From: Myxococcota bacterium
GTDB lineage: Bacteria; Myxococcota_A; UBA9160; SMWR01
Assembly (NCBI GenBank): GCA_039030075.1
Contig: JBCCEW010000017.1
Location: forward strand, 1-64,000
Direction: 5' to 3'
DNA: 64,000 nt
Position numbers and translations under genes: made by a program
Notes under the pieces: generated by a model
Seen by the model: only the letters and a program-made list of their open reading frames with translations
The model's database searches: none
What the model was told of the DNA's origin: nothing
In this document: positions 38,872 to 44,471 of the stretch, in pieces
Numbering within the stretch: position 1 is the first letter of the stretch
Layout of the letters: the number at the start of each line of letters is the position of its first letter

Positions 38872-39387
38872 ATGGCCAACCCTACCGCGCTCCTCGAGAC
38901 GTCCCTCGGAAACATCCAGGTCGAGCTCTTCGTCGACAAGATGCCCCTCACGGCGGGCAACTTCATCTCGCTGGCGAAGGATGGTTTCTACGACGGGCTG
39001 CATTTCCACCGCGTCATCCAGAGCTTCATGATCCAGTTCGGGTGTCCCCACAGCAAGGATCCGAACAGCCCGATGGCCGGCACCGGAGACAGCCCCAACG
39101 GGCGCATCCAGGACGAGCATCCGGACGACGCGAAGATCTCGAACGAACCCGGCACGCTGTCGATGGCGAACACCGGCCAGCCCAACAGCGGCGGCTGTCA
39201 GTTCTTCATCAACACCGTCCACAACGACTACCTGGACTGGTTCACGCCCGGCCAGAGCAAGCACCCGGTCTTCGGGCGCGTGACGGAAGGCATGGACGTC
39301 GTTTCGCAGATCGAATCCACGCCGACCGCCGCAGGCGACCGCCCGGCCGACCCGGTGCAGATGATCCGGATCACCGTCCAGGAGTAG
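38872..39387 (+). CDS. Cyclophilin-type peptidyl-prolyl cis-trans isomerase
   Basis: 171-residue cytoplasmic cyclophilin; it interconverts cis and trans X-Pro bonds during protein folding. [15 protein letters not shown] (about 43-57) carries the catalytic Arg; GTLSMANTG and [10 protein letters not shown] (about 98-118) and [15 protein letters not shown] (about 138-152) are the standard family blocks. Length fits the 160-190-residue bacterial PpiB type. The start ATG lacks a clear ribosome-binding site; a GTG 36 bases earlier (MDATRR...) is an alternative. No signal peptide. It is followed by a pair of hairpin-forming repeats. Confidence 0.9.
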
Positions 39388-39417: not shown

Positions 39418-39519
39418 CCAGGCGAGCGAGTTTCGGCCGCATTCGAGGCGCCGGAGCGCAGCCATAGGATCGCTACGGCGAGCTTCAGCAACGCAGCAGG
39501 CGGCCGAAAGACGCCGCCT
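39418..39519. repeat. Hairpin-forming intergenic repeat, copy 1
   Basis: A 102-bp element beginning CCAGGCGAGCGAG and ending GGCGGCCGAAAGACGCCGCC. Its first 41 bases and last 21 bases are identical to the copy at 39549-39652. Near the ends TTTCGGCCGC and GCGGCCGAAA form a 10-bp outer stem; the inner part pairs CCATAG with CTACGG around GATCG. REP- or mobile-hairpin-like; no ORF. Confidence 0.75.
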
Positions 39520-39548
39520 CACGCAGGCCTGCAAGAGCCTGGAACCTA

Positions 39549-39652
39549 CCAGGCGAGCGAGTTTCGGCCGCATTCGAGGCGCCGGAGCGAGGATCGTAGG
39601 ACCGCTACGGACTCGCTCCGGGAACGAAGAAGGCGGCCGAAAGACGCCGCCT
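39549..39652. repeat. Hairpin-forming intergenic repeat, copy 2
   Basis: A 104-bp element sharing the 41-base head and 21-base tail of copy 1, but with a different middle. Stems: TTTCGGCCGC with GCGGCCGAAA, CCGGAGCGAG with CTCGCTCCGG, and CGTAG with CTACG around GACCG. The loop-end base changes relative to copy 1 keep pairing. It ends 2 bases before the stop of the leftward Rieske gene. Confidence 0.75.
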
Positions 39653-39653
39653 G

Positions 39654-40883
39654 TTAGAGGTCGAGCTTCTCTAGCGGCGCCATCCCCAGCGCCTCCCGGA
39701 AGCGCCCGTGGTAGTGATGGAGCGCCGGCTCGTTGCGCCCGAACACCAGATGGTCGAGCTGGCCGCTCTCGGCCGCGCGCTGCTGGTGCTCGCCCATCAC
39801 GTAGTCCTCTTTCTCGATGGTGCTGTCGAAGACTTCGGTGAAGGCCGAGAGCGTGAAGACGCGATCCCCGCCCCGGTACTCGTAGGCGTTGTCGGCATTG
39901 ATCTGTTCGTCCGAGGTCGTCCCCTCGGCGCGTTCGATCAGCTCGGGGTGGAAGTAGTGCACCACGCGGGTCAGCGAACGCGAGGGGTCGCCAGGCACTG
40001 GGTAGATCTTGATCACGCTCGCGGTCTGCTCGCCGAAGGTGAGCTGAATGTTCGGAAACAGGTAGTAGAGCGGGCTACAGCCCTGGACCAGGCTCCACTC
40101 GTTCTCGGGCTTCGTGCGCATCTCGTCGATGCGCTTCGTCGCGATCACGAAGCGATGGTTGCGACCGAACGGCTCGTAGCCGAGCACGTCCCCGTGGAAG
40201 ATCTGGCCCAGCGTGTTCCGGTGGAGCCGCTTGAAGTGATACGTCTCGCCGAAGGTGTCGTTGGCGAGCTTCCAGTTGAGGCGCCCCTCGATCACGGTCT
40301 CGCCCGCGTGCTGGAGCTCGCCGAAGCCCCAGGATCCGATCTCCTGCGAGAGCCCGGCCAGCTGCTGATCGAGATCGATCGTGCCGTTGGCCTGGGGGTG
40401 CACCCAGAGGAGGCCATCGCGCTCGACGGCCGGGAGCTCGACGAGGCCGTGGCAGGCCTTGTCGATCTTCCCGACGTGGCTCTCCATGGGAACCGTCTTG
40501 AGCGCGCCGTCGCTCCCGTACATCCAGTTGTGGAAGGGGCAGACGAAGCGGGGACTGGTCCCGCGACCCTCGGCAAGGCGCGCCCCACGGTGGCGACAGG
40601 CGTTGACGAACGCGTGGAAGTCGCCGTCGCGATCGCGCGTCGCCAGCACCGGCACGCCGAAGTCGTCCACGGTCATGTAGGAGCCGGGCTCGGGAAGCGA
40701 GCCCGAGAGCCCGATCAGCTGGGGGTGTTGGCGAAAGAACGACTCCCACTCGCGGTCGGCGATCTCCGGGCAGGTATAGACCGAAGTCGGCTGGCGGTAG
40801 CCAACGCCCGCGTCGACGTTGCGCTGTTCGTCGAGCTGGCTCATCAGCTCTTTCAGGATCGAGAGTTCGACTTCACGCTTCAT
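39654..40883 (-). CDS. Rieske aromatic-ring-hydroxylating-type oxygenase
   Basis: 409-residue Rieske non-heme iron oxygenase alpha-subunit type. The [2Fe-2S] site is Cys96-x-His98 and Cys115-x2-His118 (CRHRG, CPFHNW). The mononuclear iron site region is NDTFGETYHFKRLH, with His216 and His221. The overall N-terminus (VYTCPEIADREWESFF) is typical of the phthalate/toluate-like or steroid (KshA-like) group, but substrate is unknown. No beta subunit or ferredoxin is adjacent. ATG follows AAAGGAGACCCC. It lies 25 bp downstream of a TetR gene, which likely controls it. Confidence 0.9.
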   Translation of the reverse strand: MKREVELSILKELMSQLDEQRNVDAGVGYRQPTSVYTCPEIADREWESFFRQHPQLIGLSGSLPEPGSYMTVDDFGVPVLATRDRDGDFHAFVNACRHRGARLAEGRGTSPRFVCPFHNWMYGSDGALKTVPMESHVGKIDKACHGLVELPAVERDGLLWVHPQANGTIDLDQQLAGLSQEIGSWGFGELQHAGETVIEGRLNWKLANDTFGETYHFKRLHRNTLGQIFHGDVLGYEPFGRNHRFVIATKRIDEMRTKPENEWSLVQGCSPLYYLFPNIQLTFGEQTASVIKIYPVPGDPSRSLTRVVHYFHPELIERAEGTTSDEQINADNAYEYRGGDRVFTLSAFTEVFDSTIEKEDYVMGEHQQRAAESGQLDHLVFGRNEPALHHYHGRFREALGMAPLEKLDL

Positions 40884-40908
40884 GGGGTCTCCTTTGCGTG
40901 GGCTCGGG

Positions 40909-41607
40909 CTAGGCCGAGCGTCGCCGTGCTTTCGGGCGCGCACGGTCGCCCGCACCCGTGCGGGCGAGCTGCCGTTCCAATCGATGGAGCTCCGCGTCGA
41001 TCGACGCGCGGGTGGCGTCGGTCGCGACGGAGGCCAGGGCCAGGTAGAGGCCGTACAGGGCACGGGCCTCGAACTCCGCAGGCGTCAGCAGGCCGTAGCC
41101 CCACTGGATGCAGGCGAGCTCGAACCCGTGATAGATCTGCAGCCCGAGCTGCTCCGGGTTGCGCGTGTCCTGCAAGAGGCCCTGGGCGATCGCCTGCTCG
41201 ATCCCCCGCTGCTGCATCGCCGCCGCGCGTTTCGCCAGGCGCCGATCGGGCTGGGCGTCCGGCAGCCCGCCGTAGTTCGCGATCACCATCGGCACGTGGA
41301 TCCCGGCGCGCTTGGACAGCTCCCGCACACTCACGGTGATGACAGCGCGGCAGCGCTCGAGGGGATCGTCCAGCGGCGCTTCCGCATCGATGACCCCGAC
41401 GATGCGATCGACCGCATCATCCACCAGGGCGTGGAGGATCTCGGCCCGCACCCCGTAGAGGTTGTAGAGGGTCGTGACCGACAGGTCGGCCTCGGCGGCC
41501 AGCTTGCGCATGGTCAGCGCCTCGACGCCTCCCGCCGCGATCAGGCGGCGCGCCGCCTCGAGGATGCGCTGGCGCCGGGCTTCGATGTTGAGGTCGCGGA
41601 GAGACAT
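40909..41607 (-). CDS. TetR-family transcriptional regulator
   Basis: 232-residue TetR protein with a helix-turn-helix at about 24-52 (LTMRKLAAEADLSVTTLYNLYGVRAEIL) and a helical C-terminal domain. The basic C-terminal tail (RARPKARRRSA) is unusual. It is the first gene of a two-gene leftward unit with the Rieske oxygenase. A dyad (ACTTGGAAC/GTTCAAAGT) 22 bases upstream of its ATG is the probable autoregulatory operator. Confidence 0.87.
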   Translation of the reverse strand: MSLRDLNIEARRQRILEAARRLIAAGGVEALTMRKLAAEADLSVTTLYNLYGVRAEILHALVDDAVDRIVGVIDAEAPLDDPLERCRAVITVSVRELSKRAGIHVPMVIANYGGLPDAQPDRRLAKRAAAMQQRGIEQAIAQGLLQDTRNPEQLGLQIYHGFELACIQWGYGLLTPAEFEARALYGLYLALASVATDATRASIDAELHRLERQLARTGAGDRARPKARRRSA

Positions 41608-41628
41608 GCCGCCCCCGGATCACGGGAA

Positions 41629-41649
41629 ACTTGGAACGTCGTTCAAAGT
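41629..41649. promoter_or_regulatory. TetR operator upstream of Rieske unit
   Basis: ACTTGGAAC (41629-41637) and GTTCAAAGT (41641-41649) pair at eight of nine positions around GTC, 22 bases before the TetR start and in a locally AT-rich stretch. Classic size and position for a TetR binding site. Confidence 0.6.
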
Positions 41650-41712
41650 TGTAACACCGTACCAACCTTCTTGTCCACAGAAATCGCCGGACCGCTGGGA
41701 GACGCGAGGAAG

Positions 41713-41737
41713 AGCCCCTGGGTCCAGACCCGGGGCT
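41713..41737 (-). terminator. Possible terminator hairpin after the fourth BVMO gene
   Basis: AGCCCC-T-GGGTC (41713-41724) pairs with GACCC-GGGGCT (41727-41737), an 11-bp stem with one bulged T and a 2-base loop. It lies 57 bases downstream of the BVMO stop and upstream of the TetR operator. No T-run. Confidence 0.4.
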
Positions 41738-41794
41738 GGGGGCCCGGTTCCGGGGTTGGGCTGGCTCGGCGGCGGGCCTGGTGGGCGGCCGGTC

Positions 41795-43294
41795 TCAGGC
41801 GGCCCGCGCCGGTGCGTCGCCGTCGCGCCGCTCGTAGTACTCGTCGAAGCGCGGCGCGCGCATCGAATCCAGGTAGCGCTGGGGCGACCAGGGGTAGAGG
41901 TTCGGCAGACCCGACTTGTCGTAGTACCAGCTGGTGCAGCCGCCCGTGTACCAGACGGTGTTGCGGATCGCCTGCTTCATGGCCTGGTTGTAGTCACGGA
42001 ACGCTTCTTCGCGCACTTCGAGGGAGGCGAGCTGCTCGTCGCGCATCCGGTCGAGCATTGCCACGACGTACTCGAGCTGATGCTCGGTGATCGTGATCAA
42101 CGACAGGTTGCCGACCGGACCGGTGGGGCCCTCGAGCATCCAGAAGTTCGGGAAACCGGGCACGGCCACCGCGCGATGCGCCCGCGGCGCGCCGTCCCAG
42201 GTGGTCTCGAGGTCGCGACCGCCCTCCCCCGTCACGCGCGTCGGCAGGATGAACGAGGTGTGGTCGAACCCGGTCGCGAGCACGAGCACGTCGAGCTCGT
42301 GGAGCACCCCGTCGGCGGTCTCCACGCCCTCGGGCACGACCCGCGCGATCGGTTCGGTCACCAACTCGGCGTGGGGCTGCGAGATCGCGGGGTAGAACGT
42401 GGAACAGAAGATCAGCCGCTTGCAAGCCGCCTGGTAGTCGGGCGTCAAGCGCTCGCGCAGCTCGGCGTCGGGGACGTTGTCGGCGAGGTTCTGGAGACTC
42501 GCTTCGCTGAGCGCCTGCTGCTGCTCGGCATCGCCGACCGTCGCCTCGGAGAAGGTCCGCATCATGCGGTCCTTGTAGAAGTCGTAGCCGTAGCGCTGGA
42601 GCGACGGGAAGCGTCGCAAGAGCGCCTTCGTCACCGAGCGGTACTCCACCTGGGGCAGCGGCACCATCCATTGGGGCGTACGTTGGAAGACGCGCATCTG
42701 CGCCACCTGGTCTGTGATCGCACCGACGATCTGGCACGCGGTCGAGCCGGTGCCGACCACGCCGACGCGCTTTCCCTCGAGTTCGACCGAGTGGTCCCAA
42801 CGCGCCGAGTGGAAGGCCGCTCCCGCGAAGCGCTCGAGCCCCTCGAACTCGGGCAGGACCGGTCGGTGCAGGATCCCGGTCGCCGAGATCACGACGTCGA
42901 AGCGCAGCGTTTCGCCCGCCCCGGTGGTGAGCTCCCACTCGGGCGCGTCGTAGCGCAGCGCGGCCACGGGCGTGTCGAACCGGATGTGGCGTTCGACGTC
43001 GAACTCGCGTGCCACCCGCTCCATGTAGGCCTGGATCTCGGGCCCGTAGGAATAGCGATGGGTCCATTCGGGATTCAGCGCGAACGAGAACGAATACCAG
43101 CGCGATGGGACGTCGCAGGAGAGCCCGGGGTAGGTGTTCTCGCGCCAGGTCCCACCGACGCGATCCGCTTTCTCGAAGACCGTGACGTCCGTGTAGCTGG
43201 CGCGACGCAGGTGCACGACCGCCGCGATCCCGGACATGCCCGCCCCGATGATCGCGACCCGGGGCGTGCGCCCCTCGGATGCCCAGCCTGCCAT
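41795..43294 (-). CDS. Baeyer-Villiger-type flavin monooxygenase
   Basis: 499-residue FAD/NADPH monooxygenase. GAGMSG (17-22), GGTWRENTYPGLSCDVPS, fingerprint FAGAAFHSARWD (complete) and second motif GTGSTA are present; the C-terminal YTGGCTSWYYDKSGLPNLYPW is typical of the steroid/ketone group. It resembles the truncated BVMO at the left edge (both have WRENxYPGLSCDVPS) more than the EthA-like one. ATG follows GGGAGGCAGGGCG. It is not clearly in an operon: the TetR/Rieske unit lies downstream and a methyltransferase is divergent. Confidence 0.92.
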   Translation of the reverse strand: MAGWASEGRTPRVAIIGAGMSGIAAVVHLRRASYTDVTVFEKADRVGGTWRENTYPGLSCDVPSRWYSFSFALNPEWTHRYSYGPEIQAYMERVAREFDVERHIRFDTPVAALRYDAPEWELTTGAGETLRFDVVISATGILHRPVLPEFEGLERFAGAAFHSARWDHSVELEGKRVGVVGTGSTACQIVGAITDQVAQMRVFQRTPQWMVPLPQVEYRSVTKALLRRFPSLQRYGYDFYKDRMMRTFSEATVGDAEQQQALSEASLQNLADNVPDAELRERLTPDYQAACKRLIFCSTFYPAISQPHAELVTEPIARVVPEGVETADGVLHELDVLVLATGFDHTSFILPTRVTGEGGRDLETTWDGAPRAHRAVAVPGFPNFWMLEGPTGPVGNLSLITITEHQLEYVVAMLDRMRDEQLASLEVREEAFRDYNQAMKQAIRNTVWYTGGCTSWYYDKSGLPNLYPWSPQRYLDSMRAPRFDEYYERRDGDAPARAA

Positions 43295-43457
43295 CGCCCT
43301 GCCTCCCTGGCCTGGGCCCGATGACCCGCCGTGCTCCAGAGTACACCGCCGCCCGGGCCCAAGGCGCGCCGCAGCTGCGGAAAACCCTGACGACACGCGG
43401 CTCAACCCGGCGCTTCTGCTGGCCGATGAAGAGTCCACCAAGGGAGGAACCGCCCGC

Positions 43458-44471
43458 TTGGGACGCGTACGCCGCTGGCTCAATCCGAACCAGCTCCGAC
43501 TCCAGACCAATCGCCTGCTGCGGCGCTGGGACCTCGGCCTCTACCGACCCTCCTGGGTGGAGTCCCAGCTGCCGGAGCAGTACACCCACGGCGACGCCGC
43601 CCTGCCCGAGGGCGCGGAAGCGGCGTTGCGCACCGACCACCCGCGTCTCGCCGAGCTGCGCGCCCGCTACTCCGGGCATTGCGCCGCCGCCGTGTCGGCC
43701 TGGAGCGACCTGCGACTGGAAGGCCAGATCGACCTTCGCCGCTTCCGCGGCGACAGCCAGTACCTCTACCAGGCACGCGGCACCTCCGACGCCGCCTACG
43801 CGCTGTCGACCCACTACGCCTTGCGCCACGGTCGGCTCGGCGTACTGGACCGGCTCGACGAGGACGGGCTCTTCGGTGCACTGCTCCACGACGTCGACGG
43901 TCGCGCCATCAGCCGCGATCGACTCGATGCGGCCCTCGAGATCGAGGCGCTGGCGGAATGGCTCGGTGCGGACGCGCTCGCAAAGGGACGCGTCCTCGAC
44001 ATCGGCGCCGGGTACGGACGACTCGTCCATCGCCTGGCGCAGTGGGCCCCCGACGGCGAACGCGTCGCGACCGACGCGGTGCCCACCTCGACCTTTCTGT
44101 GCGAGTACTACCTCGGGTTCCGCGCCTGCCCAGGCACCCAGGTCATAGCTCTCCACGAGATCGAGAACGCGCTGAGCACACGCCGCTTCGACCTGGCCAC
44201 CAACGTCCACAGCTTTGGCGAAGCGCCGCTCGCCAGCGTGCGCTGGTGGATCGAGCGGCTCGCCGCCGCCGACGTCCCCCGGCTCTTCCTCGTGCATGTC
44301 GAACCCGAGCTCTTCGCCCTGGAAGACGACCTCACGCGGGCGCCGCTGGCGCCGGTCCTCGAGACGCTCGGCTACCGCGCCGTCGACGTCCAGCCGAAGT
44401 ACGCCCACTCGGACGCCGTCCAGCGACTCGGCGTCTTCCCGGCCTGGTACCACTGCTACGAGCGCGGCTAG
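43458..44471 (+). CDS. Putative sugar O-methyltransferase-type SAM-dependent methyltransferase
   Basis: 337-residue class I SAM methyltransferase; the SAM-binding loop is VLDIGAGYGRLVHRLA (about 177-192), followed by a long alpha-helical N-terminus typical of the putative sugar O-methyltransferase family. Transfers a methyl group, probably to a sugar or glycan hydroxyl, from SAM; this is inferred. The start is TTG with GGAGG 10 bases upstream (agggaggaac); the longer open frame upstream reads back through the BVMO on the other strand and is not credible. It is followed at 36 bp by the membrane-tailed Rieske gene, probably in the same transcript. Confidence 0.75.
   Translation: MGRVRRWLNPNQLRLQTNRLLRRWDLGLYRPSWVESQLPEQYTHGDAALPEGAEAALRTDHPRLAELRARYSGHCAAAVSAWSDLRLEGQIDLRRFRGDSQYLYQARGTSDAAYALSTHYALRHGRLGVLDRLDEDGLFGALLHDVDGRAISRDRLDAALEIEALAEWLGADALAKGRVLDIGAGYGRLVHRLAQWAPDGERVATDAVPTSTFLCEYYLGFRACPGTQVIALHEIENALSTRRFDLATNVHSFGEAPLASVRWWIERLAAADVPRLFLVHVEPELFALEDDLTRAPLAPVLETLGYRAVDVQPKYAHSDAVQRLGVFPAWYHCYERG

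What the first reader, a model, noticed from the sequence alone, without database searches (positions are those of the whole stretch)
39418..39652. Two hairpin-forming intergenic repeats with conserved heads, tails and compensating middles
Seen: 41-base heads and 21-base tails are identical, middles differ but keep pairing (CCATAG/CTACGG versus CGTAG/CTACG; CCGGAGCGAG/CTCGCTCCGG in copy 2). Both have a 10-bp outer stem TTTCGGCCGC/GCGGCCGAAA. This suggests a folded RNA or REP/MITE-like element under structural selection, not a simple duplication.
Basis: seen in the sequence. Interest (0 to 1): 0.6.

Follow-up and report, generated by a model that had tools for sequence, protein, structure and literature searches.

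The report
Mobile hairpins sharing an ERIC-like core
The two repeats are worn-down copies of a small mobile DNA element whose middle folds into a conserved RNA-like hairpin, and that same hairpin core turns up inside many otherwise unrelated small mobile elements in distant bacteria, apparently including the well-known ERIC repeat of gut bacteria.

Summary
In detail: two tandem ~102-104-nt hairpins (39418-39519 and 39549-39652, +) lie between convergent genes. They are not the only copies. A covariance model finds 21 full copies in this genome and matches in 88 of 284 genomes sampled across the phylum. Intact copies are ~160-190-bp MITEs with terminal inverted repeats (TIRs) bounded by YTAR/CTAG, often sitting exactly on stop codons. 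IS elements carrying two of the TIR types encode IS5-family and IS1182-like transposases, and they lack the hairpin core. The window copies have lost their TIRs, apart from a probable remnant in the spacer.

The unexpected part is the core. The motif [A/G]AGGCG...CAACG[C/A]AG, with covarying stems between, sits inside MITEs with at least eight unrelated TIR types. Covariation is strong (score 0.570 versus 0.179 shuffled). G-U outnumbers A-C 106 to 24 on one strand only. The internal loop shows a non-canonical covariation (A·C with G·A, p=4e-7). These point to selection on an RNA, or less likely ssDNA, strand. Enterobacterial ERIC elements carry the same motif facing itself, the same strand asymmetry and TA termini. 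A model built without ERIC found ERIC-like cores in Klebsiella 23S-5S rRNA spacers at E=0.014-0.042. REP/RAYT membership failed. What the core does remains inferred.

The parts
39418..39519 (+). Copy 1: hairpin core of the MITE family, no recognisable TIR on its left
   Evidence: R2 93.1 bits, E 1.5e-18 in own genome; TIR test negative
39549..39652 (+). Copy 2: hairpin core, more stable fold
   Evidence: R2 86.4 bits, E 6.7e-17
39520..39548 (+). Spacer; probable decayed left TIR of copy 2 (GCAGGCCTGCAAGAGCCTGGAACCTACC against GCAGGTTGCTGAAGAACCCTGGACCGAGC)
   Evidence: local alignment score reached by 0.75% of shuffles
39431..39440 (+). Copy 1 outer stem, 5' arm (3' arm 39500-39509)
39500..39509 (+). 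Copy 1 outer stem, 3' arm
39445..39450 (+). Copy 1 conserved internal-loop motif, 5' half (GAGGCG)
   Evidence: invariant GGC columns in A3
39489..39496 (+). Copy 1 conserved internal-loop motif, 3' half (CAACGCAG); together with G43 this is the one G/C exception to the A.C/G.A rule
39562..39571 (+). Copy 2 outer stem, 5' arm (3' arm 39633-39642)
39633..39642 (+). Copy 2 outer stem, 3' arm
39576..39581 (+). Copy 2 conserved internal-loop motif, 5' half (GAGGCG)
39622..39629 (+). Copy 2 conserved internal-loop motif, 3' half (GAACGAAG)
38872..39387 (+). Upstream convergent gene: cyclophilin-type peptidyl-prolyl isomerase
   Evidence: Pfam PF00160, 162 bits
39654..41063 (-). Downstream convergent gene: Rieske/ring-hydroxylating oxygenase alpha subunit; its stop codon lies 2 nt from the end of copy 2
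   Evidence: Pfam PF00848 and PF00355

Best explanation
The two hairpins are decayed tandem copies of a non-autonomous transposable element (MITE). Intact relatives have TIRs bounded by YTAR (mostly CTAG) and are probably moved in trans by IS5-superfamily DDE transposases supplied by full IS elements with the same ends (types A and C found; a provider for the other TIR types is inferred). Because the target contains a stop codon (TAG/CTA), the elements drop in harmlessly at gene ends, above all between convergent genes. The ~100-nt core is a separate module shared by MITEs with different TIRs. It is maintained as a strand-specific folded RNA with a conserved internal loop, [A/G]AGGCG facing CAACG[C/A]AG, flanked by covarying stems. 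ERIC elements of enterobacteria carry the same module. SHOWN: copies, TIRs, YTAR flanks, stop-codon positions, transposases with matching TIRs, covariation, strand asymmetry. INFERRED: the core acts when it is transcribed in read-through mRNA, as a hairpin bound or cut by a housekeeping RNA-processing factor. That would give transcripts a defined, tolerated end or processing site and let the element persist. The window copies have lost their TIRs and are probably immobile.
For: Copies: 9 full and 2 partial by BLAST, 21 full plus 1 partial by model R2, 88/284 phylum genomes, 61 stretches found by sequence pattern alone in Deltaproteobacteria, Myxococcota, Vicinamibacteria, Desulfobacteraceae and Pseudomonadales MAGs. 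TIRs: 56 of 86 copies have TA-bounded TIRs matching at 13 or more of 18 positions; 52 of 56 have YTAR on both sides; ten groups, eight of them clearly unrelated. Transposases: L174 IS5-family (291 bits, cut-off 140) between type-A TIRs; L182 and L192 IS1182-like (below that model's cut-off) between type-C TIRs; no core in any of them. Stop codons: 38 of 79 neighbouring gene 3' ends lie at the distance of the TIR's terminal TAG; convergent 24, divergent 5. Structure: covariation 0.570 against 0.179+-0.012 shuffled and at most 0.146 slid; 30 of 34 pairs changed on both sides. Strand: GU 106 against AC 24, p=1e-6; the core strand folds more stably in 46 of 49 pattern-only sequences, mean -11 kcal/mol. 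Non-canonical covariation A.C with G.A, 35 of 38, p=4e-7, each column being the other's top mutual-information partner. ERIC: motif present, facing position expected in 62 of 400,000 shuffles, same strand asymmetry in 13 of 14 copies, blind R2 hits in Klebsiella rRNA spacers at E 0.014-0.042.
Against: No orientation bias towards neighbouring genes (15 sense, 16 antisense), which is odd for an element selected as part of host mRNA. No empty site was shown, so mobility rests on dispersed copies with TIRs. No transposase with these TIRs was found in the window's own genome (PF01609 and PF13358 both negative). Most records outside enterobacteria are MAGs, where misbinning is possible. Individual ERIC copies score only 10-23 bits with R2, so the ERIC link rests on several weak-to-moderate lines. 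Sequences in the strand and covariation tests are phylogenetically related. No expression data.
Confidence: 0.7

Rival explanations
1. DNA-level palindrome: the core is a cruciform or ssDNA hairpin used in transposition or replication (for example a second transposase site or a priming hairpin), with no RNA function.
For: The whole element is palindromic and moves as DNA; orientation towards genes is unbiased; G.T is also better tolerated than A.C in single-stranded DNA.
Against: Autonomous IS elements with the same TIRs lack the core, so it is not needed for transposition. Double-stranded DNA gives no reason for a one-strand wobble bias or for the conserved, non-canonically covarying internal loop.
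Confidence: 0.2
2. Host regulatory RNA: a cis-acting 3'-UTR hairpin, terminator or sRNA that the host keeps at particular genes.
For: Intergenic, 3'-end location; very stable fold; structural covariation.
Against: Intact copies are bounded by TIRs and YTAR, are scattered, and face neighbouring genes both ways equally. None in the same-genus genome G001. No Rfam match.
Confidence: 0.07
3. REP/BIME-type palindrome mobilised by a Y1 (RAYT) transposase.
For: Short, palindromic, intergenic, in tandem; contains GTAG near the loop of some copies.
Against: No PF01797 match in the genome although the control genomes ring. Long TIRs and YTAR boundaries. GTAG lies inside the stem, not as a 5' tag.
Confidence: 0.03
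4. The resemblance to ERIC is chance or convergence; the window family is simply an IS5-related MITE family with its own palindromic middle.
For: Single ERIC copies score only 10-23 bits; the core region of ERIC is longer; many E. coli copies have lost CAACGC.
Against: Facing motif expected in 1.6e-4 of shuffles; same strand asymmetry; a blind whole-chromosome search put three ERIC-like elements at the top; two other enterobacterial repeats, YPAL/RU-2 and RU-3, do not show the motif.
Confidence: 0.3

Closest known systems
ERIC / IRU / RU-1 (127-bp enterobacterial repeat; PMC2229807, PMC2759123)
   Same: AAGGCG facing CAACGC in a long hairpin, the AAGGCG strand folding more stably, TA at the termini, mostly intergenic, often at gene 3' ends, no own transposase.
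   Different: ERIC has TATACCC-type TIRs and a longer core arm with the GGAGCTTAC..GTAAGTGACT apical stem; the window family has CTAG-bounded IS5/IS1182-type TIRs and a short apical stem.
MITEPsy1 of Pseudomonas syringae (PMC3189936)
   Same: Small non-autonomous element, about 18-nt TIRs, IS5-like, duplicates CTAG or YTAA on insertion; its mobility was shown by experiment.
   Different: Different TIR sequence; presence of the core could not be checked here.
IS5-family and IS1182-like insertion sequences (L174; L182, L192)
   Same: Outer TIRs (TAGCAGGTTGCTGAAA.., TAGCAGCCCGTTGAAAAAG..) match type-A and type-C MITEs.
   Different: They carry a DDE transposase gene and no hairpin core.
REP / BIME with RAYT (PMC2817692, PMC3733652)
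   Same: Intergenic palindromic repeats.
   Different: No RAYT in the genome, no 5' GTAG/CGTC-type tag, long TIR-bounded element.
Correia/NEMIS MITEs of Neisseria (PMC2229807)
   Same: MITE whose RNA hairpin is processed in transcripts (RNase III); a model for the inferred RNA role.
   Different: Different TIRs and sequence; IHF site in the long form; the AAGGCG/CAACGC core was not looked for in it.

Membership tests
MITE | Short (<500 bp), non-coding, dispersed copies | tested here: met
   21 full copies, about 100-190 bp, in this genome
MITE | Terminal inverted repeats | tested here: met
   56 of 86 family copies at 13/18 or better; the two window copies themselves have lost them
MITE | Target-site duplication | tested here: inconclusive
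   YTAR on both sides in 52 of 56, but it is palindromic and no empty site was available
MITE | Autonomous IS with matching TIRs | tested here: met
   L174 for type A, L182 and L192 for type C, in relatives
IS5-related MITE | CTAG/YTAR target and IS5-superfamily transposase | tested here: met
   same target as MITEPsy1
ERIC | Core motif AAGGCG...CAACGC facing itself in the hairpin | tested here: met
ERIC | ERIC sequence similarity (conserved apical GGAGCTTAC..GTAAGTGACTGGGG and TATACCC ends) | tested here: not met
   window family has neither (alignment); so it is not filed as an ERIC, only as sharing its core
REP/RAYT | Y1 transposase (PF01797) in the genome | tested here: not met
   0 matches, while control genomes match
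Known Rfam RNA family | Match at or above gathering score | tested here: not met
   none in the window and none up to E 0.5 in five family loci
Structured RNA | Covariation beyond controls, strand-specific | tested here: met
Structured RNA | Transcribed in vivo | not testable with these tools
   No RNA-seq; only indirect: an ERIC-like core lies in sense in the transcribed 23S-5S spacer of Klebsiella

The most novel reading that the evidence does not exclude
There is one widespread, undescribed RNA motif, an 'ERIC-core' superfamily, that hitch-hikes inside many unrelated MITEs (each with its own TIRs and transposase provider) and in rRNA operon spacers, across several bacterial phyla. ERIC would be only its enterobacterial branch. 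A conserved housekeeping RNA-binding or RNA-processing protein would recognise it.
Probability: 0.45. Interest if true: 0.82.

Novelty: new variant of a known kind. Interest (0 to 1): 0.62.

Why it matters
ERIC has been used for typing for decades, yet how it moves and why it folds are open (the MITE review PMC2229807 says no transposase was shown). If the same folded core rides in MITEs whose transposases can be named, both questions become testable: core and mobility can be separated, and the protein that binds the core can be fished out with it. It also suggests that small mobile elements in bacteria can exchange a tolerated RNA module while changing their ends to suit whatever transposase is present.

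Tried and rejected
Simple duplication (refuted by dispersed copies). REP/RAYT. IS630-type (DDE_3) transposases as providers: seven loci in four relatives, none between these TIRs. Known Rfam families. A loose core pattern in viral contigs returned almost only chance hits; one (L274, 72.7 bits) is a real member. A core consensus against plasmids gave one weak Cupriavidus hit (E 0.1, not followed). Paper searches for a described MITE of this kind in Myxococcota/Deltaproteobacteria found none. ERIC-pattern scans of viral contigs gave too few copies to test the A.C/G.A covariation within ERIC.

Full report
WHAT IS THERE. Between the cyclophilin gene (38872-39387, +) and the Rieske oxygenase gene (39654-41063, -) lie two tandem hairpins, 39418-39519 and 39549-39652, spaced 131 nt, with 41-nt identical heads and 22-nt identical tails. 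Both fold far better than shuffles (z -3.8 and -7.5).

COPIES. BLAST of copy 2 against the window's genome (5.76 Mb, 55 contigs) gave 9 full and 2 partial copies. A first covariance model from those nine (R1) found a second subfamily and matches in 41 of 148 related genomes. A second model (R2) from 38 divergent cores (alignment A3) found 21 full copies plus one partial in the own genome and matches in 88 of 284 genomes drawn evenly from the phylum. A scan of 84,980 species genomes for a sequence pattern alone returned 61 stretches from MAGs labelled Deltaproteobacteria, Myxococcota, Vicinamibacteria, Desulfobacteraceae and Pseudomonadales.

IT IS A MITE. Most copies continue outward into terminal inverted repeats bounded by CTAG. 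An automatic search accepted TA-bounded TIRs in 56 of 86 distinct copies; 52 of these 56 have YTAR on both sides. TIRs fall into ten groups by loose clustering, eight of them clearly unrelated, for example GCAGGTTGCTGAAGAACC, GAGGGCATCTCATGAACC, GCAGCCCGTTGAAGAACC, GGAGCCTGACCCAAGACT, GGAGTCTGCGCGGTGGAA, GTGTTGTGTTCCAGAAGT, GTCCCCTGGAAACCTGAT, AGGGTTCACTAAAAAATA. In relatives, full IS elements carry the same ends: L174 (type A) encodes an IS5-family transposase (NF033581, 291 bits, cut-off 140), L182 and L192 (type C) encode transposases nearest to IS1182 but below that model's cut-off. None contains the core. The own genome has no PF01609 or PF13358 transposase and no Y1/RAYT. MITEPsy1, an IS5-like MITE caught jumping in Pseudomonas, also duplicates CTAG or YTAA (PMC3189936).

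WHERE IT SITS. With simple gene calls, 60 copies could be placed: 24 between convergent genes, 15 and 16 between co-directional genes with the core sense and antisense, 5 between divergent genes; 2 more lie inside genes. Of 79 gene 3' ends facing a copy, 38 lie 21-25 nt from the model edge, i.e. the stop codon is the terminal TAG of the TIR. Insertion into CTAG at stop codons explains the 3'-end location without any host function. The window copies lack TIRs, but the 29-nt spacer resembles a decayed type-A left TIR (0.75% of shuffles as good), so they are probably dead remnants.

THE CORE IS UNDER STRUCTURAL SELECTION ON ONE STRAND. On A3, 90% of cells pair, 30 of 34 pairs have changes on both sides, and the covariation score is 0.570 against 0.179+-0.012 in shuffles and at most 0.146 when slid. 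G-U pairs outnumber A-C pairs 106 to 24 (32 sequences against 2, p=1e-6) and the core strand folds better than its complement in 35 of 38. A3 was partly chosen by folding, so the test was repeated on sets chosen by sequence only: 46 of 49 pattern-only sequences and 8 of 9 BLAST copies favour the same strand. The unpaired columns are the most conserved: GGC of [A/G]AGGCG and AACG of CAACG[C/A]AG are invariant in 38 sequences. The two variable positions of that loop covary, A with C (23) or G with A (12), only 3 exceptions, p=4e-7, and each is the other's strongest partner among about 120 columns. This is expected for a non-canonical pair in a folded RNA, not for double-stranded DNA. Related sequences inflate such p-values, but the two states recur in different TIR groups.

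THE SAME CORE IN ERIC. From memory ERIC carries the motif; this was tested. Real ERIC copies from Enterobacterales plasmids and chromosomes show AAGGCGGC..GCCAACGCA, degenerate in many E. coli copies; Vibrio copies read TAGGCG/CAACAC. In shuffled ERIC the two halves face each other within 8 nt in 62 of 400,000 trials; in ERIC they face with an offset of 1. R2, built without ERIC, scores 7 of 12 ERIC loci at 10-23 bits on the correct strand, with the motif halves in register in the alignments printed; the best chance match in 88 kb of other sequence was 10 bits. In a 5.4-Mb Klebsiella chromosome the three best R2 hits (E 0.014, 0.042, 0.042) are elements with AAGGCG..GGAGCATAC..GTATGTGACT..CAACGCAG, i.e. 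an ERIC core with other outer arms; the two tested lie in the 23S-5S rRNA spacer in sense orientation. ERIC copies share the strand asymmetry (13 of 14) and TA termini (PMC2229807). YPAL/RU-2 and RU-3 as printed lack the motif. ERIC's ends and apical stem differ, so the window family is not filed as ERIC.

HOW IT PROBABLY WORKS. Shown: a non-autonomous element with IS5-superfamily ends whose middle is a module independent of those ends. Inferred: the module acts as RNA. Because insertions are not biased in orientation, the selection is probably on the element's tolerance and persistence when transcribed (a processed or protected hairpin), not on regulation of particular genes. Known precedents are ERIC altering upstream mRNA stability in Yersinia through an RNase E site and NEMIS cleaved by RNase III (PMC2229807, PMC10969869). 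The binding factor is unknown. A DNA role cannot be excluded but does not explain the strand-specific features.

LIMITS. MAG misbinning, related sequences, no expression data, no empty site, approximate gene calls.

Noticed in passing
L375, L376, L377 (Klebsiella pneumoniae CP125156.1, 23S-5S spacers); L409 (E. coli C): ERIC-like hairpin with different outer arms inside the 23S-5S rRNA spacer, sense strand; similar sequence in Salmonella records and in 364 of 5426 E. coli genomes, the one looked at (E. coli C) in the same spacer.
   Followed up: partly
Family loci, e.g. L194, L203, L208: The terminal TAG of the TIR coincides with the stop codon of a neighbouring gene in 38 of 79 cases; in convergent pairs both stops can coincide.
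   Followed up: yes
L194-L197, L203, L208 (own genome): A second subfamily in the same genome with TIR AGAGGGCATCTCATGAACCCC, moved presumably by a different transposase.
   Followed up: partly
L110, L115, L132, L138 (Meg19_02_Bin_79 contigs): Copies with the left arm deleted up to about GATCAAGG while the right arm is intact; could be hairpin-mediated deletions or assembly artefacts.
   Followed up: no
L072 (G033:C5): A TIR-less copy flanked by a 26-bp direct repeat GGCGGCGGCATGCCGGGGATGATGTA.
   Followed up: no
L242 1260-1374 and 1423-1539: Two family members with different TIRs standing side by side at a shared CTAG.
   Followed up: no
window 39654-43510: Rieske ring-hydroxylating oxygenase, TetR regulator and flavin monooxygenase genes in a row on the - strand, a likely catabolic cluster.
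   Followed up: no
CP125156.1: Record labelled 'plasmid unnamed2' is a 5.37-Mb Klebsiella record with rRNA operons, i.e. evidently a chromosome.
   Followed up: no
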